From a virus, in IMG/VR virus record IMGVR_UViG_3300008954_000068, positions 1 through 55,677 of that record: 55,677 bases of DNA; one strand, given 5' to 3'. The notes beneath the pieces are model-generated. The model was not told the DNA's origin, did no database searches, and worked only from the letters and a program-made list of their open reading frames with translations. Every line of letters begins with the position of its first letter. Positions within the stretch are counted from its first letter, which is position 1. Below, piece after piece: positions 1-55,677 of the stretch. A program made the translations under genes and the position numbers.

Positions 1-1046
1 ACCTTCTCCGCCCCGGGCAAGGCGTAGTCCACCATGCCAGCAGCATCGGATGCAGCGTACAGATTCCAGAACTGCTGCCACCGTTGAACCGTCGGCTCCT
101 CTCGGAGCTTCACGCTCGCAGCCTCGAACAGCAGGAAGCACACATCACCACGCTGGGGGATAGGCCCGGCGTGTGCCAAGCACAGATCCACGTCAGCCAA
201 GTCACGCAGCTTGCGGAACTCCATGAGCGCAAGCCCGTTGCCCTTGCCGACGAGACCTGACAAGCACATCTCCATCACCTCGAACGGAGCATGCACGGAT
301 TCACATGCAGCCAGCACGCGTTCCACCCATGTCCAGGTGCGAGGGCAGGCGACCGGTGTATTGACGCAGCGGATATCCTGGTCATCCTCGTAGGCTTCCG
401 GGTTGGAGGACAAGAAGGCGTCCACCAATCCAGCAGCAGCAGGGATGTGAGACTCCCAATCGTCAGGGAGAATCAGAAGCTCGGGGTCAGGGAATCCCTG
501 CGCCTTGCTTCTACGCCAGAAGTCCAGCGGCAAACGCCACCGACGCTCGGACTCGAACCCCAACCACAGATACCGTGAGGCAGTGGGAGGCATGATGTCC
601 GTGGCATTGGGCGCGATGTCCGGAGGATTCATCGCAGCGATGAACCGTGTCTCCGAGGGCAGACGCACATCTCCCACCAGCTTTGACTGGATGACCGTGA
701 GCATAGCAGCACGCACCAGCGGAGAGCAGGTGTTTAGCTCGTCAAAGAAGATGACGGGAATCTGCCCGCGTCCAGCAGCAGCGATAGCTTCCCGGAACAC
801 ATGACCGGGCAGCTTGACTACAGTTTGCTCGCCCGTGTCCGGGTCAGTGACAAGCACAGGCATTCCAAAGTCTGTGCCAGGGTCACACTGTGTGCCGATG
901 ATTGTCCCACAGAAATGGTAGCCGAGTGAACGACACATTCCTTCTGCGATTTCGGTTTTCCCTACGCCGGCAGGGCCGACGAGGAGCGTAGCAATACCAG
1001 CTTGAAGACTCAAGCCAGCAGCCAGTCCCATATTGAACAGTTGCAT
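1..1046 (-). CDS. MoxR-type AAA+ ATPase (3' end lies outside the window)
   Basis: An open frame of 348 codons runs from ATG at 1046 off the left edge. Walker A is GPAGVGKT (residues 24-31), Walker B is VIFFDELN (98-105, acidic D102-E103) and the sensor-1 Asn lies in AAMNPP near 140. This is the MoxR/RavA class of AAA+ unfoldase, which usually works with a VWA-domain partner. The leader carries GGAAAGGAA about 9 bases before the ATG and a hairpin at 1093-1114. Downstream, across the probable circular junction, lies the minus-strand VWA operon (55540-52130), so I infer a shared function. The substrate is unknown. The family call is firm; the biological role is not. Confidence 0.9.
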   Translation of the reverse strand, partial: MQLFNMGLAAGLSLQAGIATLLVGPAGVGKTEIAEGMCRSLGYHFCGTIIGTQCDPGTDFGMPVLVTDPDTGEQTVVKLPGHVFREAIAAAGRGQIPVIFFDELNTCSPLVRAAMLTVIQSKLVGDVRLPSETRFIAAMNPPDIAPNATDIMPPTASRYLWLGFESERRWRLPLDFWRRSKAQGFPDPELLILPDDWESHIPAAAGLVDAFLSSNPEAYEDDQDIRCVNTPVACPRTWTWVERVLAACESVHAPFEVMEMCLSGLVGKGNGLALMEFRKLRDLADVDLCLAHAGPIPQRGDVCFLLFEAASVKLREEPTVQRWQQFWNLYAASDAAGMVDYALPGAEK

Positions 1047-1092
1047 TTTGGTTTTTTCCTTTCCGTCAACGGCATTGTCGAACGGCCAGAGC

Positions 1093-1114
1093 CCACACGC
1101 CGTGAAGCGTGTGG
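1093..1114 (-). terminator. Hairpin between the small-gene operon and MoxR
   Basis: A perfect 8-bp inverted repeat, CCACACGC (1093-1100) and GCGTGTGG (1107-1114), has a 6-base loop. It lies 18 bases after the stop of the 83-residue gene and about 50 bases before the MoxR start. There is no U-run after it, so it may attenuate or protect RNA rather than fully terminate. Confidence 0.5.
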
Positions 1115-1131
1115 ACTGTAGCTATGGACAA

Positions 1132-9706: not shown

Positions 9707-9966
9707 TGTCTATTACGGCCGCAGCAGCAGTAGCGTCCCCGATTATAAAGAAGGCAGCGATTTCTGCTGTGGGTTCTCTACTAAGCAAGCAGGGGAAAGG
9801 GGGAGAGGACGGGAAGGGGAAGGAGAACGTCGCCGCCCAAGAGATTGCCCAGAATGAGCAAGCCAAGCTCGCCGCTCGGTCCAAGCCTCCCTCGGATGAG
9901 GAAGTCCGCCAGCGGATGCAGAAGTCTCTGGCCCAGTCAGCTCAAAACCTGCAGAAGGCATACTAA
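9706..9966 (+). CDS. Hypothetical protein, 86 aa
   Basis: Begins at ATG 9706, overlapping the terminase stop (TAATG), with GGAGGAAG upstream. It has an Ala-rich hydrophobic N-terminus (residues 1-25), a Gly/Lys linker and a Gln-rich C-terminal helix (EEVRQRMQKSLAQSAQNLQK). It resembles a small internal head or head-completion protein only in general character. Coupled to both neighbours. Confidence 0.7.
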   Translation: MSITAAAAVASPIIKKAAISAVGSLLSKQGKGGEDGKGKENVAAQEIAQNEQAKLAARSKPPSDEEVRQRMQKSLAQSAQNLQKAY

Positions 9967-10184
9967 TGAGCCAGCTTACTCTCCCTATGTTCGACCCCAT
10001 CAAAGTTGGGATAACGGCCCACGCAGATGGGAAGCACAAGTTCGCCATCGAGCGCGTCCCGGGCCAAGATGCGATGCTCGTCAGACGCGACCACGGAGAG
10101 AGCATCACCATTCCTATGAGCATGCTCGCTCAGGGCAAGACTATCGCAGAGGCGTACGAGGAGCTTATCGGTGGCGAAGGTTGA
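9966..10184 (+). CDS. Hypothetical protein, 72 aa
   Basis: A small, mostly beta-patterned protein (KFAIERVPGQDAMLVRRDHG) with a C-terminal helix (GKTIAEAYEELIGGEG). ATG overlaps the preceding stop, and the 3' end overlaps the next gene by 14 bases. No family recognised. It may assist the neighbouring ART-like protein or portal assembly; nothing shows which. Confidence 0.65.
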   Translation: MSQLTLPMFDPIKVGITAHADGKHKFAIERVPGQDAMLVRRDHGESITIPMSMLAQGKTIAEAYEELIGGEG

Positions 10185-13100
10185 CACCAGCCGCCGTGAC
10201 CAACGGCAAGACGCGGCTAAGCAGGCCATTCTCAAAGACCTCCTAAAACAGAGGCTTGTAGAACTTGCCGAGGCTGGGTTCGTCATCTCTATTGGCGGGG
10301 CGGCCTACAATCGTCTCCTCCAATCCCTGGGCGAGGCCGCCGAGATGGGGGGTGTTGATGTAGAAGCTCTCCTTCGTGACCCAAAGCTGATGCAGGACTT
10401 CAGCACCGCACACATCGCAGGGAACTGGGAGCAGATGGAGAAGAACTGGCTTCGGGCTCAACTCCGTAAAGGAGTCTTCAAGCAGAGCCCCGAGTCTGCC
10501 AGTAAGTTTCAGATGAAGATCAAGATGGGGCTAATCAATGATGGCCGCCACAAGCTCCAAGAGCAGCTTGAAGAGAGAGGAGAAGAGAAGCCCAACCTTC
10601 GAGAGGCTCGCCAGGAGTTCTTCCTCGGGCGAAAGCAAGTACGCCAGTGGCATGACGTAATCGCATCAGTAACCGCCCTGGACGCTACGGATTCGGCTAC
10701 TTGGATGGCCCTTGAGGAAGCGGCGGACTCATACCGGCATGAGGAAGGGGCTAAGATCCTCAACAATCGAATCCGGTATCTCAAGCCCCCAGACATGCCT
10801 GAAGGATTGTGGAAAGAGCTTCTTGAAGCCAAAGCGGGGCAGCTTTTCCATTTGATGGAAGACCCTCTTGAACTCCTCACGGAGGAAGACAAGACCAACC
10901 TCCGGCTTCAGACTCGGGCTGCCCAGGAGTGGGGGAGGGCACTCAAAGTTGCGGAAGGGACATCACCGGGGGGGATGAGCCCAAGGCTCCAACGCTACTC
11001 CGAGCAGCAGCAACGACTTTCGCAGATGGAGACGGGACCGGGCCGGGGTGGGGGCCAACTGCTACCAGGGGAAATGGCATTCAATCCAGCCATCTCCACT
11101 CGACCCAGCGTGCGAGCCTCTCAGTTTATCCCTGAATACTACAACGCCATTCGAGGGAGAGGAATCACCGAGGCTTGGCGGAACAACGTAGACCCCGAGT
11201 TTCTCAAGAAGCTTCAGTTTGTGCATTGGACCCGTGACCCCGAAGAGATCGCAGACGCCATGTCGGGGAAGCCGGACTTTGTCGGGGGGGGATGGGATGC
11301 AGAAGTTCCATACGGCGCTCGACTCGAAGATGATATCTCCGCTCATGCTTATCTGAAAGAAGGCCCAGAAGGCTTCGGAGGACCGAGATTCCATTCGGGC
11401 ATAAGAGCAGTAGGACTTGTTCTTGAAGGGGATGTAAACTTCATTGGGAACTTTGATATCTATTCAGCCCCCACACAGGGGCTGGGGCCCCTCGGTGAAG
11501 AGCATCACCCAGCACTACGGCCCGCTACCAGCCGCAAAACTGGGATACCCATGGGGCAGCGTAGATGGGTAAGCACACACCCCACCAGTGCCGAACAGTT
11601 TGGGCATTCTCCCATCCTACCAGTGCTGGATAAGGAGACGTTCCTGACGACCGAGCAGAAGGCGGGGGAAGTCGGAGGTAAAAAAGCATCATCCGCAGGG
11701 AAGGTCAACGAGGCCCTCCTGGGCAACACCGAAGTCGTTGGAGTCGTGATTCCACACGAGGAGATTCGAGAATACTACGACCAGAACTTTTCCCAACGAG
11801 GGACCGCTCGGACCATGGCCCAGGAGGCGGCGCAGGTAGCGGAGCGATTTCAAGTTCCACTCCTCGGGCTCGATAAGAAACCCCTCCCCCCTGTCGAAGT
11901 GTGGCTTCCTACTGACACTCCTGCTGACAAGCTTGCGGTCAAGTTGGTGCAGTCTCTTCAACGGCGGGTGCAGGCACCGGTTGCCGCCCTGGAAGCTAAA
12001 AAGTCGAAGAAAGAGATTGAAGAAGCCTTGAAGGCAGCCCACTTGCAGCAGGATTATCGGACTGTAGCACGACTCGCTGCGCCCATCTCCGGAAAGGCAG
12101 ACGCCGCTATACTCAACTCTCCAGCTTTTCGAGGAGCATGGGAGAACGCGATTCGGGAGAAGGAAGACTATTTCCGGGCGAGGAAGGTCTACTTCCCTGA
12201 CTATTGGGATGGGGAACAGTGGGCGGGCCACGTCAAAGCCGCGTATGCGGCTCATGGGGACCCGGCGGCCCTGCTGACCGACATTCTTGAGATTCCAGTT
12301 GTGGCGGGCTGGGAGACGTGGGATGAGAAAGTCCCGGAGCGTTCGATCAAATACAACAGGACGCTCTACGGCTTCCTCAAGAATCTCCAGCCTCTCCGAA
12401 ACGAGATTGATCTTCCCGCGCATCCCCAAAAAGAGTTCGCTTCAGCGATTGCTTGGGATAATGCGATTGAGGATGTTCACACCATCCCCAAGATAGCGGC
12501 AGACACATCCCGTCTCTGGAAAGACCGGCAACGCAGTATCTTGCGTATTCTTGAAAGGGCGGTCTTTATCCAAGAAAACTTTGATTGGATCAAAGTGGGA
12601 AACGCTGGCGCTTCCACCGAGTTTCCCTTTCCCGAATCTCTCAAATATGCGAGTAGATATGCGATCCCCGGAGCAGAGGAGCATGGCCCAATCGTCCGTG
12701 GGATTCAACAGTATTGGAGTAAGCGGGACAACGCCGTCAAGCATATCGCAGACAAGATTGGGGACAAGCCAACTGGCCTTGTCAAACAGGCTCCCGCAAA
12801 GGTAGTTCCCCAAACCAAGGCTGCGCCTCAAACCCCTCGGGCTAAGGCCGCGCTTCCAGCGCCGGAGCCCACCCCGGGCAAGCCACCCCCGAAGGGTGTT
12901 GATCCTGTTGGGCGTTGGTTGAAAGAGGTTCCTGTAAAAGCCCAGGCGGGGACTGCCTATGAAGCGATCAAGGCGAAGTCACCTGAAATGCTCCGCGCCC
13001 CGGATGTTGCAAAGGCCGTTCGAGATGGGGATCGGCTGATGGAGGCCGCGAGGGCAGCCGAGGACGCCGGCAATCTCCCTCGGGCTAAGCAGTTGCGCCT

Positions 13101-25139: not shown

Positions 25140-25619
25140 ATGGCCTCTCAAATGCTTTGGAGCCCGAAAAAGTCACATCGTGAAGATTTGATGGCCCAGA
25201 AAGGAAAGCTGGGCACTCCAGGCATGTCGAAAAAGCAGAAGCAGCAGGCTATGGGGCGGGCTGCGACTGCTGCTGGAACGCAAGCTGGAGCGCAGCAGCG
25301 GGAAATCGCTCGAACTGGACTCGCTGCGGGCACCCAACCTGGGCAGTACGCCCAGGCACAGGCGGCCATTGCAAAACAGGCGACCGAAGCTGCGGTTGCT
25401 CCGGCTCCTGCGATTGAAGCCGAATCCTCCCGCATCGCTGCGGAACGGGATGCTCAAATCCGGGCTTCCATTGAACGCGAGTATGACCGTCGCCTCAGCC
25501 TGAAGATGCAAAAGAAAGCCATGCGGAAGAGCGGAGGAAGTGGGGGGATGATGTCGGGGGCGGGCAGCGCGTTGGGCGGGGCTGGTATGGACAAAATCCT
25601 TGGAATGATTGGGAGCTAA
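25140..25619 (+). CDS. Probable internal virion protein, 159 aa
   Basis: Ala/Gln/Gly/Met-rich and basic, with a long central helix (about residues 70-130) and a Gly/Met-rich C-terminus (GGMMSGAGSALGGAGMDK). Composition and place directly before two large internal-core candidates fit the first of the three podovirus ejection proteins (T7 gp14-like position). ATG after GGAGTTTCTC. Confidence 0.65.
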   Translation: MASQMLWSPKKSHREDLMAQKGKLGTPGMSKKQKQQAMGRAATAAGTQAGAQQREIARTGLAAGTQPGQYAQAQAAIAKQATEAAVAPAPAIEAESSRIAAERDAQIRASIEREYDRRLSLKMQKKAMRKSGGSGGMMSGAGSALGGAGMDKILGMIGS

Positions 25620-25621
25620 CC

Positions 25622-27874
25622 ATGGCTGAACAGCAATCTATGGACGAGCGCATCCGGAACTATCGCCAAGCGCAGCGTACTGCGATGGGCAAGACCCTTG
25701 CTGGTGCATACGACATTGGCCAGGGCATGGACCCGAAGTCACAGGCGAGCATGACATACCGGCACTTCGGTGGTCCGGAGATGAGCAAGAAGGACCGGGA
25801 GCAGTTGATGCTCCAGTATACACAGTTGGCGAGCGAGCTTCAGCAGTCCGCACAGCGCCTCCAGTCTCGGGGCTCTCGGGCTACTCGGGGTGAGGTTGGA
25901 GAGTTCGACAGGACGTGGGAAAAGCTAACGGAGTTGATGGGAAAAGCTTTGAGCCCCCAAGCGACGGTTGCCTCCAAGAAGATCGAGTCTGCTGCCAAGA
26001 AGCGGGACCATCATCTCGCAACCATCGATCAAGTTCGAGCAACTAATCCTGCGCTCAGATCCTTTGAGGAGTTGAAGCCTGACCAGCGGAAAGCGGTAGC
26101 TCAGTTAGAAGGGATGTGGAAAAGAGGCGATCCCAACTTCGGAAATCAGCTTTCTTTGTCCTTGGAGAAGATTGAGGACCCTTCCGAGTTTTCTGTTCTC
26201 ATGGATATTCTTGGGAAGCGTCTTGTTCGGGAGGGGCATCTTACACTTGAAGAGGGCCAGACAGCCCGGGAAGGGGTGCGCGACGAGGCCCTTAGCACGC
26301 TCTCACCATCAGAGCAGAGCAGGCTGGAAGACCAGTTCGATACTGGCGAGCAGTTGGTGAGCGATGCGATGAAACGGATCAAAGACGCGCAGGGTGAAGC
26401 CGATGCTGCCGAGAAGGAGATCCAACGGCACGTCGTAGGAGTCGATGCAGAGTCTCGGGAGCTTCTGAGAGTCTTGACAGAACAGAAGATTGCCCAGGCA
26501 AAGCTCAAGACTGGTGTGTTGGACAAGTTGGCTGCTGGAGAAGAAGTCGATCCAACCGCCCTCCAGTTCGCCATGAGAACCAGCACTGCGGTTGCTGCCC
26601 CTGGGCTAACTCCGATGGAGGTCACCGAGGAAGGACCCGAGCAGCCCTACGACTACATGAAGAAGGCGCTCGACCGCCTCTCCGTGATTCCTGATGACCG
26701 CTCTCTCTCTGGGCTTCGCCAAGAGATGATGGCGAGTGATGGGTTTGCTCAGTATATGGCCGACCGAGAGTTCCAAGACGAGGACTTCGCCTTCCGCCAG
26801 ATGATGCGGGAGTACAACAAGAAGCGTCGTCAGGCTGTCCGGTCTGACCGTCTCAAGGTTCGCCAGCAGAGAATCCAGGCGAGAGGAGAGGGAATCGCTG
26901 ACCAGATGATCGGCGTCGAGCCCGTCGATGACTACACCCGGAGGGAAGCGGCCCGCATTGCGGACGTGATGGAAGAGCCCCGCGAAGGTGCCGAGGTGAC
27001 GCTCGGTGGGCGGGATGTCGGAGAAGAAGGGCGTCCTTCGATTCGAGAGCGCCTTTCTATTCGGGACCGGGCACAAGAGCGGCTCCGCGAGCGCCAAGCA
27101 GAGCAGGGCGTTGACCCCCGTTACCAGGGCACTCTCCCCGAGCTTATCGAGGAAGACCTTGAGCTTGCTGACATGCCCGAAGAGCCAGCAGTGGCCGACG
27201 AGGCTGCGTTGGCTGCGCTCGATCCCGAAGCCGAGCTTTCCGAGGCAGAGAAGGCAGAAATCGTCGGAGCACAAGAGCCTGTTCCGGGCTTTGAGGAGCT
27301 TCGAGCCGATGAGGCAGCCGAAGAGGAGTTCATCGCTCCTGCCGAAGAAAAGTTCATGGAGGCCCTTGGTCCGGAGCTTGGCGTCACTCCGGGTGGCGAA
27401 GCGGAAGAGCTTCTTGGTGGAGAGGAGATTGAGGGTGCTGTCCCCCTGGGCAAGCGTGGAATCGAGGACATCGAGATTGGCGAGGAAGCGGGTGAGCGTC
27501 GAGAGCGTGAAGCCGGTGAAGCAGCAGTCAGCGCCCGGGAGGTAGAGGGAAGACTTGGTGGGGCTGCGGCCCGAAAGATGCAGTTCGCTCCTGAATGGTT
27601 GCTTGAACCAACCCGGGCCGCAGAGATGGCCCAGGAAGCAGAGCCGAGTCTGCCTAAACGGGAAGAGGAAGAACTCGGAGAGGTTGAAGAGGAGACTGCT
27701 CCTGAGGAAGAACTCGGAGAGGTTGAAGAGGAGACTGCTCCTGTAGGAGTCCGACTCCAATCCTCCTCGGGCCTTGGTCAAGCGGCCTTGGAGTCTTCTT
27801 CAGGCGGCTTACCGAACAGAGAGGATCTTCTCCGAGCACGAAACAGGGCAATCCAAGCATCACTGGTACAGTAG
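25622..27874 (+). CDS. Probable internal core / ejection protein, 750 aa
   Basis: Long helical, coiled-coil protein. Residues 1-480 are charged and helical; the C-terminal 270 residues are extremely acidic, with Glu-rich repeats. A 39-bp exact tandem duplication encodes two copies of EEELGEVEEETAP near residues 682-707. Position fits the middle podovirus internal protein (gp15-like). The acidic tail could mimic DNA or aid packing. No enzyme motif seen. Confidence 0.65.
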   Translation: MAEQQSMDERIRNYRQAQRTAMGKTLAGAYDIGQGMDPKSQASMTYRHFGGPEMSKKDREQLMLQYTQLASELQQSAQRLQSRGSRATRGEVGEFDRTWEKLTELMGKALSPQATVASKKIESAAKKRDHHLATIDQVRATNPALRSFEELKPDQRKAVAQLEGMWKRGDPNFGNQLSLSLEKIEDPSEFSVLMDILGKRLVREGHLTLEEGQTAREGVRDEALSTLSPSEQSRLEDQFDTGEQLVSDAMKRIKDAQGEADAAEKEIQRHVVGVDAESRELLRVLTEQKIAQAKLKTGVLDKLAAGEEVDPTALQFAMRTSTAVAAPGLTPMEVTEEGPEQPYDYMKKALDRLSVIPDDRSLSGLRQEMMASDGFAQYMADREFQDEDFAFRQMMREYNKKRRQAVRSDRLKVRQQRIQARGEGIADQMIGVEPVDDYTRREAARIADVMEEPREGAEVTLGGRDVGEEGRPSIRERLSIRDRAQERLRERQAEQGVDPRYQGTLPELIEEDLELADMPEEPAVADEAALAALDPEAELSEAEKAEIVGAQEPVPGFEELRADEAAEEEFIAPAEEKFMEALGPELGVTPGGEAEELLGGEEIEGAVPLGKRGIEDIEIGEEAGERREREAGEAAVSAREVEGRLGGAAARKMQFAPEWLLEPTRAAEMAQEAEPSLPKREEEELGEVEEETAPEEELGEVEEETAPVGVRLQSSSGLGQAALESSSGGLPNREDLLRARNRAIQASLVQ
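27665..27742 (+). repeat. 39-bp perfect tandem duplication within a CDS
   Basis: Bases 27665-27703 are repeated without change at 27704-27742. The unit encodes a 13-residue acidic block and keeps the frame. The exact identity of both copies suggests a recent duplication. Confidence 0.9.
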
Positions 27875-27877
27875 GCT

Positions 27878-30800
27878 ATGACGACTTCCAAGGAGCTTCT
27901 CGAACTCTATGGGGACTTCGTCAAGGAGCCCAAGGAGGAAGCTGCGCCCGAAGCAGAAGCGCCGCCGCCCGAGCCGCTGGAGCCGGAGACCGCTCCCGCC
28001 CCTCCGATTCCTAAGCTGGAGATTGCTGGGCAGCCCCCAAGCCCCCCTGTAGCCGCGCCGGAGCCCGAGCCGGTTGTGATCCCGCCAGTAGAGGAGGCCC
28101 CCGCACCCGCAGAGCAGTCGAAAGCTTTGACTCCGCTTGACCCGGAGTTTTGGGCGCAGGAAGCGGCAAAGCGGGAGGTCACCACCGAAGAGGATGTTTC
28201 TACGTGGTGGAAGGACGTAACCGAGGGCCCCCGGCCCGACGTAGAGGCGCAGCTTGAGCATGCCCCACCTCCGGGCGGATACCCCGAAGTGGACTACGGA
28301 GTAGACGAAGTTCTACTCCAAAAGAAGCCGCCTGCTGGATTCGATGAGGAAGTCCCTCGTTCCGTGCGGCTGCATCTCCTCCAAACCGGGGCGGTCAAGG
28401 CCCCGGAAATCGAGGGCAAGCCTGCTGGCTACGAGGCAGAAGCTCTTCTGGATGATGACCAGTTCTGGTGGGATGTTTGGCGGAAGCAGCGTCTCCAAGC
28501 TCCGGGCGTCCGCGAGCGGATGGGAGCCACCGTCCAGAAGGCCCAAGAAGAACTCCGTAAGAAGGAGGGTGTTGACCGGGCTCTTGAGTTCGCTCGGCGT
28601 ACTGTTCCCACTCGGCGCATTGCTGGCGTCCCGGGCCTTGCGGTTGGCTACCACGACATGCGCGACCGGGTGCAGATTCATATCGAGCGGGCGCTCATGG
28701 ATGCCGAGCCTGTTCACCCCCGCTACATCAGCCAAGCAAAGAAGGGCGAGATTGCAGCCCGGGCCCGCCAACTGGCTACCGCAGAGATGGGCCGGTACAT
28801 GGAATCGGGCCAAGACCGTATTCTTATTGACCGGTATGGCCGAGACGCAACTGAATGGTTGATGCGGCGGAACGCTCTTATCCGCCCGATTCTCGCCATT
28901 ACTTCGGGTGTTGAAGCTCCTGGAGAGGGGGAACCACGTACAGGTATCGGGCGTCTCCGCTCCGCTTCTGCACTCAACATGTTCGGGCGAATGGATGCGT
29001 CCACGATCTTCGCAGCGATGCTCCTGACGGGAGAGGGCCCGTCAGCCCGGAAGACGATTGAGACCATCCGCTCGGGCGTGGACATCTTCGATGCCGCCAA
29101 TCAAGTGGGCGAACTCTTCTTGGGCCTTGAGGAGGAGATGGAGGAAGGTCTCCAGAGGGAAGCCAGGATCGCTCGGGACCAGGGAGTCCCAGAAGAGGAG
29201 ATCCAGCAGAAGATTGAAGATGCCCGGTTCCGGTACAACTATGCTCGGAAGTGGGTGGGCACTACGGGCTCCGTTGGGGCGATCCTTTTCGCCCCTGATC
29301 CGATGAGTCTCACAGCTACGGGTGCAGCCATCGGGCCTAAGATGCTGTCTGCCCAAGTGAAGATGCGTAAGCTCCAGCAAGGGGAGAAGGCTTTCCGGGG
29401 CGCAGTAAAGGAACTCCGTACAACCCCGGCCACTGACGTGCGCCTCCGGGCCATCAAGAAAAAGCTCCAGGATATTGATCCGGTCTATGGCCGGGCATTT
29501 GATGTAGCTATCGGAGAAAAGCTGGCGCTTACAGGCGACATTCCTGGGGCAGCCCGGATGGCTCTGGACAAAGCAGCAACACTTCGGAGGGAAGCAGAAG
29601 AGCTTCTGGAGAAGGTGGCTGCGACCGCTGACGAGTTTGCCCAAGCAGAACTCAAGGTGCTCGCTGGATCCAAACAGGCTGAAGCCGCTACGCAAGAGTA
29701 TGCAGCTACCATCTTCCAGCAGACGTTCGAAGAGCTTCGGATGGAGAGGCTGCTCGAAGAGGAGGGCATGGCAGCCGCTCGAATCGAAGAGATCCTCGAC
29801 TCAGGCAAACTGCCCGCAGATGCAGACAAGGCTGCTGCGCGAGTCACGAAGCAACTGAAGAAAGATGTAAAAGACGCCAGGGCAGAAGTGGCGGCAGCCG
29901 AGGCTACACACAAGCCGTACTGGGAGTTGGAGCAGAAGGCAGCGAACTCCTATGAGGTTCATGTCCGGGTAGCCCTGAAAGGCACTCCATTCGATGGCTA
30001 TGTGCCCCTGCACATCTTTGCGCGGAAGGCAGATCCCGCACCTGTACTCTACCAGAAAACAGCCGATGGGCGTAAGGTCCCGAACCGTGACCCCAGTGGC
30101 CGCTTCGGGCCTGCCGCTACAGTTATCGTCGATGACGTAAAGCCTTGGCGTACCAATCGAGTCAAGATCGTGATGCGGCGCATGGATACTGGAGAGGAAA
30201 TCACGATCAAACAGAAAGTGGATCCCGACTTGATGGAGGGACTACGCAGGACTCGCAATGCAGTTCACAAGGCAACGAAGGAAGGGTTCCCCCACGCAGG
30301 GGCCTACGACGCAGCAACAAAAAGCCTCGGCAAAGCAGAGTTGGCGCTGAAAGTTGCCGAGGAGGGAGGGCTGCTCACACGGGGGATGGAGAGCCTCGCC
30401 AACATCAAGGGTGCCCGGAGAATCACGGGTAAGAAATACGACGCGGCCAAGAGAGCCGCCAAGATTGGTGACAAGGAAGTTGTACGCCTCCGGAAGATTA
30501 TTGCCGACGCTGGGCTCAAGTCTGTCCGCAAGAGCATCCAAGCAGACATGCTGGACAAGACCATGGTTCGGGCTGGAGATGCTCTGGAAGAGGTGGCCGA
30601 TGGGATGGCTGCATTCCTCAAATCTGCTCGAAAAGAGTTCGGCGGCATCAAGATGCTGGGCCGAACCAGTCGGGATGTAGCTGCCCTGGGGGCTTCCATC
30701 AGCGAAGAGAAGGTGATGAAGCTCGCGGATAGGGCTATCGCTGGGAGCCGAATTCGCTTTGACCGGGCTACCGACACGGCGACTGTGAACGTGGATAAGG

Positions 30801-52129: not shown

Positions 52130-52969
52130 CTATGCACTTATGGCTTGCATGAGGGCGAGCGCAGCGGTGGCTTCCACCTCGTCCGCACGGTCCCGCAGTT
52201 CCTTGAATGACTTCTGGAAGATGCCTTCATACCGTTGGAGGTACTCGTCCAGTTCCTGGGCCATGGTTTCACGGGACTTGAGCGCCCGCTTGCCGAGGTC
52301 ACCCGACTCGATGGATTCTGCCAGGGCATCAAGCTTGGCTTGCACCTGGGTGATGACTGCATCACAGACAGCATCCACAGTCTCGGGCTCGGTGGTGGTG
52401 CGGAGCAAGTACATCTTGTTTCCAGAGTTCGCACCCTCAATCACCCGGGCCACCTGTTCCCACTTGGGCACGTCCTCCTCGGCCAGCCAGTAGAATCCAC
52501 CGGATGGGCGGAGGGACACTCCCTTCAAGGATTCAACACAGCGGACAAGGATCTGCCCCATCTGGGCGGCGGGCACCTTGCCCTTCTCCAAGGCAAACTC
52601 TTCCCGCACACGCTGGATGAGAAAGTGATCTCCCGGGCGGAAGACAAGGTACGCCTCGCCTCCCATGTGGCTGGGGTAGATGATCAGGACTTGCATCTGC
52701 TGCTCATGCACCATGTCCCCGTTGTCGTCGGTGCTTTCGTGGATGACTGCAAACCCAGCCTTCCCTTCCAGCGGACGGATCAACTGGCGTCGGCCAGGGT
52801 ACACAGTTGCCAGGGCTCGACGGAGCGACGGCTTGTCCGTCATCTCTACGGGCACGCAGTGACTCAGGCCAGCAGGCTTGAGCCCGTCGTGGACTACATC
52901 CAGTGGCGTACCGTCAGTCAGGGACCAGTACCCGATGACTCCATTCAGTTTCAGTTCTCGATGTTGCAT
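52130..52969 (-). CDS. Hypothetical protein of the MoxR/VWA cassette, 279 aa
   Basis: ATG 52969 follows GTGAGGAAAGAAC, the shared ribosome site. The N-terminal 180 residues look mixed alpha/beta (GVIGYWSLTDGTPLD, then GRRQLIRPLEGKAGFAVI). The last 90 are a long charged coiled coil (QAKLDALAESIESGDLGKRA, then YEGIFQKSFKELRDRADEVE). No enzyme motif is seen. Its neighbours suggest a substrate or adaptor for the MoxR/VWA pair. I cannot name a family. Confidence 0.7.
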   Translation of the reverse strand: MQHRELKLNGVIGYWSLTDGTPLDVVHDGLKPAGLSHCVPVEMTDKPSLRRALATVYPGRRQLIRPLEGKAGFAVIHESTDDNGDMVHEQQMQVLIIYPSHMGGEAYLVFRPGDHFLIQRVREEFALEKGKVPAAQMGQILVRCVESLKGVSLRPSGGFYWLAEEDVPKWEQVARVIEGANSGNKMYLLRTTTEPETVDAVCDAVITQVQAKLDALAESIESGDLGKRALKSRETMAQELDEYLQRYEGIFQKSFKELRDRADEVEATAALALMQAISA

Positions 52970-53002
52970 TGTTCTTTCCTCACGATGCTTGATTGCACCA
53001 GA

Positions 53003-53030
53003 CAACCCACCGACTCACGCCGATGGATTG
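53003..53030 (-). terminator. Hairpin between the VWA gene and the 279-aa gene
   Basis: A 12-bp stem (53003-53014 with 53019-53030), closed by a 4-base loop. Several pairs are G-U only when read on the minus strand, so the structure belongs to the minus-strand RNA. No U-run follows. Confidence 0.5.
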
Positions 53031-53053
53031 TAGGGAGAATCAACTACCCTGGG

Positions 53054-54376
53054 CTAATCCTCAATCTGCACGGTCTTGGCCCATGAGGGCACGCGTTCAA
53101 TCCATGAACTCTTGCCGACGGCGCAGACTACCAGGGGCACAGGACACCTCTTCCTGGGCCAGTCCGTCTCGCAGTCGGTGACGACGATGATGACGTGCGG
53201 TCGGGGCGTAGACTTGAGGGCGGCCTCAATCCCAACGCGCATGTCCGTTCCACCTCGCCGGTCAATCTCCACGCGGGAAGCATTGGCCACCTTCTGGGCT
53301 GCGCCTGCGGACGTGTCGCAGCAGAACACAGTGACAGAAGATCCTACTGCCCGGCAGATACCGTTGATTTCAGACAGCCCGCTCTCCACCATCTGGTTGC
53401 TCATGGAGCCGGACGTGTCGAGTACAAGGGCAATCTCAATCTTGGGCTTGTACATAGCAGGGAGGATGATTCCTCCAAGCGCAGACTGCCTACGATTGAT
53501 CTTCCTGTACGTGTAGTCCTCCGCTCCTGCGCTCATCTCAATGGATGCTCGCACGATACGGGACAGCGTTTGCTGCCACGGGATTGTGGGAGGGGCGAGC
53601 GTCTCGTTTGCCCATTCTTGCCACTCGACAGACACGGAGCCGATGCCATTCTGCTGGACATGCTTCCGAACTTCCTCGGCTACATGCTGGCGGATAGCTT
53701 CCAGTTCTCCCTCGCTCATCCCTTGAGCCTCCGGGCTATCCGGGTCGGCGTCCGGGTCAGGTGGCCCAAGCTCCCACTCACGTTCCGGGCCTCCAGCACC
53801 GGAACCACAGTCGCAGCCACCGGGCTGGCCCTGTCCTTGACCGTCGCCTTCTCCCGGCTCATCTCCGGGTTGGCCTCCCCCGTCATCACCACCCTCGTCA
53901 TCCTCGGGCAGGTTGACGTAGTACCACTCTGCCAGTTTCCCCTCGGGCAAACCCAGCTTGTGGGGAAACACACACCAGCCCTGGAGATTCTCTTTCAGCA
54001 CACGGTCATCATTGATCTCACAGTCACCGGCCTTGTTCCACCGTTGGTGGTCAGGCTTCATCCCGTTCATCACGGGCAGACGTTTGAAGCGAATGGCATG
54101 CCGCCGGAGAATGTGGCCGGCTACTTCATGCAGCAGGTCAGCAGCGAGCGCATCTAGCGTCTCCGTTGTGAGCATGATGGGGTCGTAGAAGACCCGTCCA
54201 AACTCATCACACGCCCAGCCTCCGCTCTTCTGCCGCAGTCCTGGCACCGGCACCAGGGGAGCAGCATAGAGCGCTCGGGCTACATACGGCATGAGTTGTC
54301 GTGCGCGTAAGCGTACAGCAGTGAGAGGGAATCCATCCTCTCGTCCGCTGTGGTTTACAGTAGGTCTCGGTTGCAT
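53054..54376 (-). CDS. VWA-domain protein with metallopeptidase-like N-terminus, 440 aa
   Basis: Two parts. Residues 70-100 contain LLHEVAGHILRRH (H83, E84, H88, H93), similar to the HE-type zinc motif of DUF2201-like proteins but with one extra residue in the HExxH spacing. A Gly/Asp/Gln-rich linker (about 165-215) follows. The C-terminal VWA domain has the full metal site DTSGS (320-324), T377 in GGTDMR, and D401 in TDCETD. Such proteins pair with MoxR ATPases. ATG after GAGGAAAGAAC. Confidence 0.85.
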   Translation of the reverse strand: MQPRPTVNHSGREDGFPLTAVRLRARQLMPYVARALYAAPLVPVPGLRQKSGGWACDEFGRVFYDPIMLTTETLDALAADLLHEVAGHILRRHAIRFKRLPVMNGMKPDHQRWNKAGDCEINDDRVLKENLQGWCVFPHKLGLPEGKLAEWYYVNLPEDDEGGDDGGGQPGDEPGEGDGQGQGQPGGCDCGSGAGGPEREWELGPPDPDADPDSPEAQGMSEGELEAIRQHVAEEVRKHVQQNGIGSVSVEWQEWANETLAPPTIPWQQTLSRIVRASIEMSAGAEDYTYRKINRRQSALGGIILPAMYKPKIEIALVLDTSGSMSNQMVESGLSEINGICRAVGSSVTVFCCDTSAGAAQKVANASRVEIDRRGGTDMRVGIEAALKSTPRPHVIIVVTDCETDWPRKRCPVPLVVCAVGKSSWIERVPSWAKTVQIED

Positions 54377-54412
54377 TGTTCTTTCCTCATTATCCTACGG
54401 GATGTAGGGAAT

Positions 54413-54440
54413 AGCCCACCCCCCATGCGAGGGATGGGCT
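54413..54440 (-). terminator. Hairpin upstream of the VWA gene
   Basis: Bases 54413-54422 pair with 54431-54440 over 10 bp in the minus-strand RNA, one pair being G-U; on the plus strand that pair is a mismatch. It lies just after the stop of the 364-residue gene. The minus-strand sequence after it is ATTCCC, so termination may be weak. Confidence 0.55.
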
Positions 54441-54445
54441 GTGCT

Positions 54446-55540
54446 CTACAGCCAGTCGATCCAACCGTTGCCGTCAAGGGCGTTGTACCAGTTGTCGCCC
54501 AGCGGACGTATCTTCCACTCTCCAGCGGAGCGGGTCACGAGCGCCCATGCGAAAACGGATACTACTTTTCCGGCGTTGCTCCTCCGGTTCAACCCAGCGT
54601 GGTGTACCTGCACAGGGAAAGACACATCCCCCTGGGCAGGAATCTCCACGGGTGGAGCGTCGATGATGAACACGCCCTTCACGTCGTCCCTTACGCGAGC
54701 GTCCTTCCCCAGCGAGGCGAACGGTTTCCCAGCAACATGGGTTTGCCAACGCCGCATGGAATGAACGCCTTGACAGAGGTTGTTCTGGAAGTATTGGTGC
54801 CATTTTCCTGTACGCTGTTTGATACGTGCTTGGAAAAGGCTCAATGCTTCCACCTCACTCCTCTTTTTGGGCTGGTTGTTACTCCATGAGCGATTCTCGG
54901 AGAGCCCACGAACCCAGCGACGGTACTTCCCAAAAGCAGGCTTCACGCCACACTTGGCAGCGGTGAGTGCATCCTGCCAGAGCACTTCCTGGGCACCATA
55001 TAAGCCGTACCCCAAGTCGCTGATAGTTTGCTCCTGTCCCTTCTCCCAGCATGAATCGAGCGTAGCAACGCAGTCAGCGAACACCGCACGGGGTGGTGTT
55101 TCATAGCCAGCGTGCCTCTCTCGTTTCTCCTTCACCTTGAGCGCAAGCTGCCCCCACGGGCGCAACTCCGTGGGCAACTGGCGGAGGGCATACTTCACGG
55201 ATATTTTCCGCAGTTCCATACTGCGAGACTCATTCCACCGGCCCTTGTTCTTCACGCTTTCATACTGGCGTTCCTCGTTTACCCAGCGTGGAAGCGCGTG
55301 CTCCTCTACTGGACGGTCGCAAGGATCTTCTGCCGTGAGCCAGCGCCACCACCATAGAACTTCATGGCAACGGCAACGCAGGTCAGGATTTAGGGCACGC
55401 AGCATCTCCATGCCGGCGTCCGTATCCTCGTCGTGATCCAGTAGGGTCAGTCGTCCGTGGTTCGTGAGAACGATACGGTGCAGTGAGTTGCAACACCGTA
55501 CCTTCTCAAGCGCCCGAACGTGGTCCGGGGTATGCCTCAT
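54446..55540 (-). CDS. Hypothetical protein of the MoxR/VWA cassette, 364 aa
   Basis: Unrecognised. The N-terminus has Cys and His clusters (KVRCCNSLHRIVL; LRCRCHEVLWWWRW) that could bind metal. The middle is helical and basic. The C-terminal 90 residues are beta-rich (GVFIIDAPPVEIPAQGDVSF, then VSVFAWALVTRSAGEWKIRP), ending NGWIDWL. ATG at 55540 overlaps the stop of the upstream fragment (ATGA), so it is coupled to it. It is likely a partner in the MoxR/VWA system. Confidence 0.7.
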   Translation of the reverse strand: MRHTPDHVRALEKVRCCNSLHRIVLTNHGRLTLLDHDEDTDAGMEMLRALNPDLRCRCHEVLWWWRWLTAEDPCDRPVEEHALPRWVNEERQYESVKNKGRWNESRSMELRKISVKYALRQLPTELRPWGQLALKVKEKRERHAGYETPPRAVFADCVATLDSCWEKGQEQTISDLGYGLYGAQEVLWQDALTAAKCGVKPAFGKYRRWVRGLSENRSWSNNQPKKRSEVEALSLFQARIKQRTGKWHQYFQNNLCQGVHSMRRWQTHVAGKPFASLGKDARVRDDVKGVFIIDAPPVEIPAQGDVSFPVQVHHAGLNRRSNAGKVVSVFAWALVTRSAGEWKIRPLGDNWYNALDGNGWIDWL

Positions 55541-55677
55541 GCAGCACCTCCCGCCGATGCGTCAGGACTCATGCCGACCATGCGGAAGATATTCATGACG
55601 CTGGCCATCCCCTTGGGCAGAGCCTTCAACGCGCCCTGAATGTAGAAGGGATTCGGCGAGCCATCACCCAGCTTGGG
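55537..55677 (-). CDS. C-terminal fragment, probably the end of the MoxR gene
   Basis: An open frame enters at the right edge and ends SPDASAGGAA, with TGA overlapping the next start. It holds 46 codons beginning PKLGDGSPNPFYIQGALK. If the genome is circular, this would follow the MoxR gene that runs off the left edge. The frames differ by one base at the exact join, which I take as a trimmed base; a separate short gene is the alternative. Confidence 0.6.
   Translation of the reverse strand, partial: PKLGDGSPNPFYIQGALKALPKGMASVMNIFRMVGMSPDASAGGAA

What the first reader, a model, noticed from the sequence alone, without database searches (positions are those of the whole stretch)
52130..55677. 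Four-gene phage cassette: MoxR ATPase, Cys/His-rich unknown, HEVAGH-VWA protein, coiled-coil unknown
On the minus strand, across the probable circular join, MoxR (1046-1) is followed by a 364-residue unknown, a VWA protein with a complete DTSGS metal site plus a zinc-like HEVAGH motif, and a 279-residue unknown. MoxR/VWA pairs remodel or load metals into target complexes in bacteria, and related vWA-MoxR systems take part in conflict. A phage version with two unknown partners is little explained. It could remodel host complexes, mature virions or counter defence. Each gene has its own leader hairpin and ribosome site, so the doses may differ.
Basis: partly seen in the sequence, partly recalled or inferred. 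Interest (0 to 1): 0.8.

Follow-up and report, generated by a model that had tools for sequence, protein, structure and literature searches.

The report
Phage MoxR–VWA–DUF6744 remodelling cassette
A phage carries a four-gene set built on a known type of protein-remodelling machine (a MoxR ATPase and a VWA partner), and one of its two 'unknown' genes, DUF6744, belongs to a family that keeps turning up beside such machines in many phages and plasmids, which marks it as a likely third working part.

Summary
The four genes are real. The contig is cut inside MoxR, with 16 bp missing at the join; restored from a 99.7% identical contig, MoxR is 400 aa and its stop overlaps the start of the 364-aa gene (ATGA). 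The VWA protein is a DUF2201 metallopeptidase-VWA. The fourth gene is DUF6744 (PF20529). MoxR–DUF2201 pairs in phages are already published, so the core is known. New here, as far as I could search: DUF6744 is a recurrent third component. It sits beside MoxR and VWA on 10 of 11 examined plasmids and in Moorella phage MTATph1, and in 19 of 50 other viral records with this VWA; 18 of those 19 lie within 7 kb (0 of 100,000 random placements as close). It pairs with at least two unrelated MoxR–VWA types. Its confident AlphaFold model has no significant PDB match. The 364-aa gene is fast-evolving: a 57-kb relative has all four genes in the same order, and its Cys/His N-terminal domain recurs beside MoxR/VWA in three other viruses. 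The cassette lies with the replication genes, favouring early complex remodelling. Function remains inferred.

The parts
1..1046 (-). MoxR-type AAA+ ATPase, N-terminal part (residues 1-~348; Walker A GPAGVGKT at residues 24-31); continues across the contig join at 55677-55537 with 16 bases missing from the window
   Evidence: AAA_5 6.6e-7, PHROG 1297 4e-25; 400-aa reading from L003
55537..55677 (-). MoxR C-terminal part up to its stop codon; TGA overlaps the ATG of the next gene (ATGA)
54446..55540 (-). 364-aa protein, fast-evolving; N-terminal Cys/His domain, rest unknown; translationally coupled to MoxR (inferred from overlap)
   Evidence: no Pfam/NCBIfam/PADLOC family, no significant PHROG; N-terminal domain shared with L035, L058, L065 ORFs; same position and 4-bp overlap in L035
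55337..55513 (-). N-terminal domain of the 364-aa protein, RC-x4-HR...GRL...DH...C-x-C...EVL..WR, possible zinc ligands C16, H21, H36, C58
53054..54376 (-). DUF2201 protein: metallopeptidase-like N-terminal domain plus VWA domain, 440 aa
   Evidence: PF13203 2.3e-19, PF09967 2.7e-18; PHROG 1314 3.7e-46; 34-41% identical to actinobacterial plasmid proteins
54113..54130 (-). H83-E-V-A-G-H88 motif (HExxxH; aligned kin have HExxH)
53405..53419 (-). MIDAS DTSGS motif (residues 320-324)
52130..52969 (-). DUF6744 protein, 279 aa: alpha/beta body plus long helical hairpin
   Evidence: PF20529 7e-7, above cut-off; HMM of plasmid/phage members built without the window 1.4e-18; hhalign 98.6%, E 1e-15, residues 10-275; AF2 pLDDT 93.5
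54377..54445 (-). hairpin and ribosome site before VWA
   Evidence: RNA fold z -2.7; leader GAGGAAAGAACAATG shared exactly with DUF6744
52970..53053 (-). hairpin and ribosome site before DUF6744
   Evidence: RNA fold z -3.0
1050..1125 (-). hairpin before MoxR
   Evidence: RNA fold z -3.7

Best explanation
The cassette encodes an ATP-driven protein-remodelling machine used early in infection. Inferred mechanism: MoxR forms a hexameric AAA+ ring; the DUF2201-VWA protein docks on the ring and grips a client through its MIDAS metal; DUF6744 is a dedicated third subunit, either the main client or the adaptor that presents it; the 364-aa protein, made in a coupled ratio with MoxR, is a lineage-specific specificity factor with a probable zinc-binding N-terminal domain. 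The likely client is a replication/recombination or host-takeover complex, not the virion. Shown: gene content, domain families, recurrent physical linkage, synteny in a relative, a confident DUF6744 fold, location with replication genes. Inferred: complex formation, stoichiometry, client, timing, and whether the metallopeptidase domain still cuts anything.
For: Families. DUF6744 homology. DUF6744 beside MoxR+VWA on 10 plasmids of three phyla (HMMs) and in Moorella phage MTATph1. Among other IMG/VR loci with this VWA type, 53 of 57 have MoxR and 18 of 57 have DUF6744 within the fetched flanks. Whole records: 19 of 50 hold DUF6744, 18 of 19 within 7 kb of VWA, median 1.1 kb, 0 of 100,000 random placements as close. 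It is the most frequent neighbour family after MoxR and VWA once clusters read as antisense overlaps are set aside. On the VWA tree the label needs 8 changes, at least 4 forced by well-supported branches, so the association was made or lost repeatedly. Relative G006 keeps all four genes in order, followed by primase, helicase and exonuclease. Other recurrent neighbours are helicases and ParB-like proteins. On proteobacterial plasmids a comparable MoxR-DUF3150-VWA set often lies next to lambda exonuclease/Bet genes. The ring/adaptor principle is taken from NorQ/NorD (PMC9976466).
Against: No experiment and no complex prediction; linkage is not binding. 39 of 57 related viral loci have no DUF6744 within their (sometimes truncated) flanks. 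In one virus (L078) it lies 18 kb from VWA, in HVTV-1 about 15 kb away on the other strand, and in the Subdoligranulum plasmid no MoxR/VWA was found within 6 kb. The 364-aa gene is shared convincingly with only one relative. Early expression is read from gene position, not measured.
Confidence: 0.5

Rival explanations
1. Virion assembly chaperone: the pair folds or processes structural proteins, as proposed for jumbo phages and reported for the tail of Acidianus two-tailed virus.
For: Published proposal for the same DUF2201-type pair (PMC7824862), with its ATV precedent cited there.
Against: In the window and in relative G006 the cassette is on the strand of the replication genes and precedes them, apart from the structural genes. 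DUF6744 modules also sit on plasmids, including mobilizable ones, near DnaN, helicase or transfer genes.
Confidence: 0.2
2. Counter-defence or inter-element conflict system: the machine disarms a host defence complex or is aimed at competing elements.
For: MoxR-vWA ternary systems are predicted conflict systems in bacteria (PMC7159879); mobile-element distribution, repeated gain/loss and fast-evolving partner genes (DUF6744 26%, MoxR 29% versus DNA polymerase 51% in G006) fit an arms race.
Against: No PADLOC match above noise; none of the published third components (VMAP, iSTAND, FtsH, beta-propeller) was found in the cassette; the families also recur next to replication genes.
Confidence: 0.2
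3. Only the ordinary MoxR-VWA pair is functional; DUF6744 and the 364-aa gene are unrelated neighbours.
For: Many relatives lack one or both unknown genes.
Against: DUF6744 lies close to VWA in 18 of 19 records that hold it, with different gene orders and two MoxR-VWA types.
Confidence: 0.08

Closest known systems
DUF2201-type MoxR/vWA-metallopeptidase pair of jumbo and N4-like phages (PMC7824862; N4 gp24/gp25 homologues, PHROG 1297/1314)
   Same: AAA+ ATPase beside a VWA protein with an N-terminal metallopeptidase-like domain
   Different: No DUF6744 or 364-aa homologue within 5 kb in the N4-like, Xanthomonas and Yersinia phages examined; window has HExxxH instead of HExxH
MoxR-DUF2201 modules of actinobacterial plasmids (Rhodococcus, Mycobacterium, Xylanimonas)
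   Same: Closest named relatives of the window VWA (34-41%, E to 8e-58) and MoxR
   Different: Followed by a 60-aa gene, a ~390-aa gene and an SF1 helicase; no DUF6744
Plasmid and Moorella-phage modules: DUF6744 + bpMoxR/RavA-like ATPase + ViaA/CoxE-like VWA
   Same: DUF6744 beside MoxR and VWA; MoxR-VWA-DUF6744 order in actinobacteria
   Different: Other MoxR and VWA types: bpMoxR with AAA_lid_8, VWA without the DUF2201 metallopeptidase
MoxR-DUF3150-VWA set of pCAR1 and other conjugative plasmids (ORF100-103 also noted in SXT/R391, PMC2642839)
   Same: Three-part layout, one protein of unknown function between MoxR and VWA in pCAR1
   Different: DUF3150 shows no significant similarity to DUF6744 (hhalign probability 0.45%); VWA annotated NorD-like
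RavA-ViaA, NorQ-NorD, CbbQ-CbbO
   Same: Working principle: MoxR ring plus VWA adaptor remodelling a client complex
   Different: Client known there; no DUF2201 metallopeptidase domain and no DUF6744 (from general knowledge of these systems)
vWA-MoxR ternary conflict systems (PMC7159879)
   Same: MoxR, vWA and a third protein
   Different: Third components are VMAP, iSTAND, FtsH or beta-propeller proteins; none found here

Membership tests
MoxR-type AAA+ ATPase | AAA_5-type AAA+ module with Walker A and B | tested here: met
   AAA_5 29.9 bits against cut-off 22; GPAGVGKT and FFDELN in the sequence; aligns with the plasmid MoxR HMM at 1e-31
MoxR-type AAA+ ATPase | helix-2 insert and hexameric ring | not tested
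   No structure of MoxR was predicted
DUF2201 metallopeptidase-VWA | PF13203 plus PF09967 | tested here: met
   70.5 and 66.7 bits, cut-offs 23.2 and 26.4
DUF2201 metallopeptidase-VWA | complete MIDAS DxSxS...T...D | tested here: met
   D320, S322, S324, T377, D401 conserved
DUF2201 metallopeptidase-VWA | HExxH zincin motif | tested here: not met
   HEVAGH = HExxxH in the window; HExxH in the five aligned plasmid homologues and in the phage proteins. The family assignment rests on the two domain models; the claim of an active peptidase is lowered
DUF6744 (PF20529) | match above curated cut-off and near full-length similarity | tested here: met
   28.9 bits against 27; hhalign residues 10-275, 98.6%
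vWA-MoxR ternary conflict systems (PMC7159879) | third component VMAP, iSTAND, FtsH or beta-propeller | tested here: not met
   No such Pfam family in the cassette proteins
RavA-ViaA | RavA-like MoxR (bpMoxR, AAA_lid_8) and ViaA/CoxE-type VWA above cut-off | tested here: not met
   Window MoxR has neither model; VWA_CoxE 17.8 bits, below cut-off 26.4
Known anti-phage defence systems (PADLOC) | match to a PADLOC model | tested here: not met
   Only P-loop-length matches at E 0.004-0.009 to MoxR
DUF3150 | profile similarity of the third component | tested here: inconclusive
   Not significant; the best local match falls on a short shared glycine-tyrosine-proline motif

The most novel reading that the evidence does not exclude
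DUF6744 is a portable third subunit, with a fold not matched among solved structures, that mobile elements (bacterial phages, haloarchaeal tailed viruses and plasmids) have combined repeatedly with different MoxR-VWA motors to make ternary machines acting on their own replication or recombination complexes; the 364-aa protein is a fourth, lineage-specific part.
Probability: 0.45. Interest if true: 0.75.

Novelty: new variant of a known kind. Interest (0 to 1): 0.6.

Why it matters
MoxR-VWA pairs on phages and plasmids have been noted for years without a client. A third family that follows two unrelated versions of the pair across Bacillota, Actinomycetota and Cyanobacteria plasmids and many viruses names the protein to test first, and gives a DUF with no paper in the searched library a concrete hypothesis.

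Tried and rejected
Simple circularisation of MoxR: rejected, 16 bp are missing. ORF364 as a known family: nothing significant in Pfam, PHROGs, NCBIfam or PADLOC, no tblastn hit in 50,697 phage records. ORF364 as homologue of the plasmid ~390-aa gene, the 60-aa gene or DUF3150: no support. DUF6744 homologous to DUF3150 or to the ~390-aa gene: no support. AlphaFold of ORF364 failed (pLDDT 39, 4 sequences). PDB fold search with the DUF6744 model: nothing at E <= 0.001. Profile of the VWA alignment against PDB sequences: nothing. The second half of HVTV-1 was searched first without result. PHROG 1314 'HNH endonuclease' is read as a misnomer, since members examined carry DUF2201 domains.
Full report
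What is there. The window is a single virus record with a replication module on the minus strand (DNA polymerase, Sak4-like, exonuclease, helicase, DUF5906 primase) and packaging/structural genes on the plus strand (terminase, portal, head protein). The cassette precedes the replication genes on the minus strand. A 99.7% identical contig (L002/L003) bridges the ends and adds 16 bases missing in the window; with these MoxR is 400 aa. Its stop codon overlaps the start of the 364-aa gene. VWA and DUF6744 have their own hairpins and the same exact 15-base start context.

Families. MoxR: AAA_5 and PHROG 1297. VWA: DUF2201_N plus DUF2201. Its MIDAS is complete, but the metallopeptidase motif is HEVAGH, one residue longer than the HExxH of its aligned kin, so enzyme activity should not be assumed. 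The fourth gene is DUF6744: weak but above cut-off in Pfam, 1.4e-18 with an HMM built without it, and 98.6% in hhalign over residues 10-275. The 364-aa gene matches no library.

Known core. MoxR-DUF2201 pairs are widespread: the window VWA protein matches 89 phage records by tblastn, among them N4-like and jumbo phages, and the pair was described with a virion-assembly proposal in PMC7824862. The closest named relatives of the window pair are on actinobacterial plasmids, where a different set of genes follows.

DUF6744 as third component. tblastn with the Moorella phage DUF6744 found 20 plasmid records. [quoted passage not shown] the unannotated Subdoligranulum record showed none within 6 kb. 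The MoxR and VWA proteins examined there are of the bpMoxR/RavA and ViaA/CoxE kind, not the DUF2201 kind. An IMG/VR search with the DUF2201 protein gave 57 further viral loci: 53 have MoxR and 18 have DUF6744 in the flanks, in several orders and on either strand. Searching 50 whole records found DUF6744 in 19; in 18 it lies within 7 kb of the VWA gene (median 1.1 kb; expected 4.5 of 19 by uniform placement; 0 of 100,000). Two of these records have identical VWA sequences, so about 17 are independent. On the VWA tree, DUF6744 marks most of one clade, plus only the window and L035 in the other: it has been gained or lost several times and occurs with more than one motor type. The haloarchaeal virus HVTV-1 also has a DUF6744 homologue (hhalign 98.5%, E 3.7e-15), with MoxR and VWA about 15 kb away.

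The four-gene arrangement. Relative G006 (57,423 bp; L035, L087, L088) has the same order: MoxR, 354-aa ORF with a 4-bp overlap, VWA, DUF6744, small gene, primase, helicase, exonuclease. Polymerase and terminase are 51-57% identical, but MoxR 29% and DUF6744 26%. The 354-aa ORF matches the 364-aa protein only weakly on its own (i-E 0.17), so its equivalence rests on position, overlap and the N-terminal pattern together. Similar N-terminal patterns occur in ORFs next to MoxR or VWA in L058 and L065 (E 1e-5 to 1e-4). The pattern C-x4-H...H...C suggests a zinc-binding domain; this is inference.

Structure. AlphaFold2 on 17 DUF6744 sequences gives pLDDT 93.5, pTM 0.84: an alpha/beta body (residues 8-192) followed by a long helical hairpin (195-278). 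Foldseek finds no PDB match at E <= 0.001 but four viral predicted structures at E 2.3e-10 or better, including one of HVTV-1. The 364-aa model is unusable.

Mechanism. By analogy with NorQ/NorD (PMC9976466), MoxR is expected to form the ring and VWA to act as adaptor holding the client through MIDAS. DUF6744 is the best candidate for the client-facing third part because it is the family that follows the pair. Replication or recombination context recurs: helicases in 15 and ParB-like proteins in 10 neighbourhoods, DnaN or helicase on several plasmids, and lambda exonuclease/Bet beside comparable MoxR-DUF3150-VWA sets. This favours a replication or takeover complex as target. Complex formation and target are untested.

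Novelty. The pair is known; DUF6744 is a named family without any paper in the searched library; its recurrent link to MoxR-VWA modules was not found in the papers searched. That library lacks most subscription papers, so an existing description elsewhere is possible. Filed as a new variant of a known kind.

Noticed in passing
window ends 1 / 55677: The contig breaks inside MoxR and lacks 16 bases at the join compared with IMGVR_UViG_3300008952_001947.
   Followed up: yes
L089, L090-L094: MoxR-DUF3150-VWA sets look very common on plasmids (DUF3150 tblastn: 1,139 records); in the fetched ones they often sit next to lambda exonuclease/Bet genes. Function apparently unknown.
   Followed up: partly
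L022-L026: Actinobacterial plasmids share a five-gene block: MoxR, DUF2201-VWA, ~60 aa, ~390 aa, SF1 helicase. An Erwinia N4-like phage (L004) also has a helicase directly after its DUF2201-VWA gene.
   Followed up: partly
L031:5895-6620, L039:6286-7005, L045-L047, L082/L084: Another family of about 220-280 aa recurs between MoxR and VWA in viruses without DUF6744; possibly an alternative third component.
   Followed up: no
PHROG 1314: Annotated 'HNH endonuclease' in PHROGs and in RefSeq phage records, but members examined carry DUF2201 metallopeptidase and VWA domains; the name looks wrong and has spread.
   Followed up: partly
L099/L100 (HVTV-1 9797-10963, 25610-29463): Haloarchaeal tailed virus HVTV-1 carries DUF6744, MoxR and VWA in one genome but not adjacent.
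   Followed up: partly
window 2474, 3464, 39770, 46920, 52967, 54374 (-): Several minus-strand sites share an AAGGAAAGAAC-like leader just before a start codon (6 matches with up to 3 mismatches, 1.5 expected).
   Followed up: no
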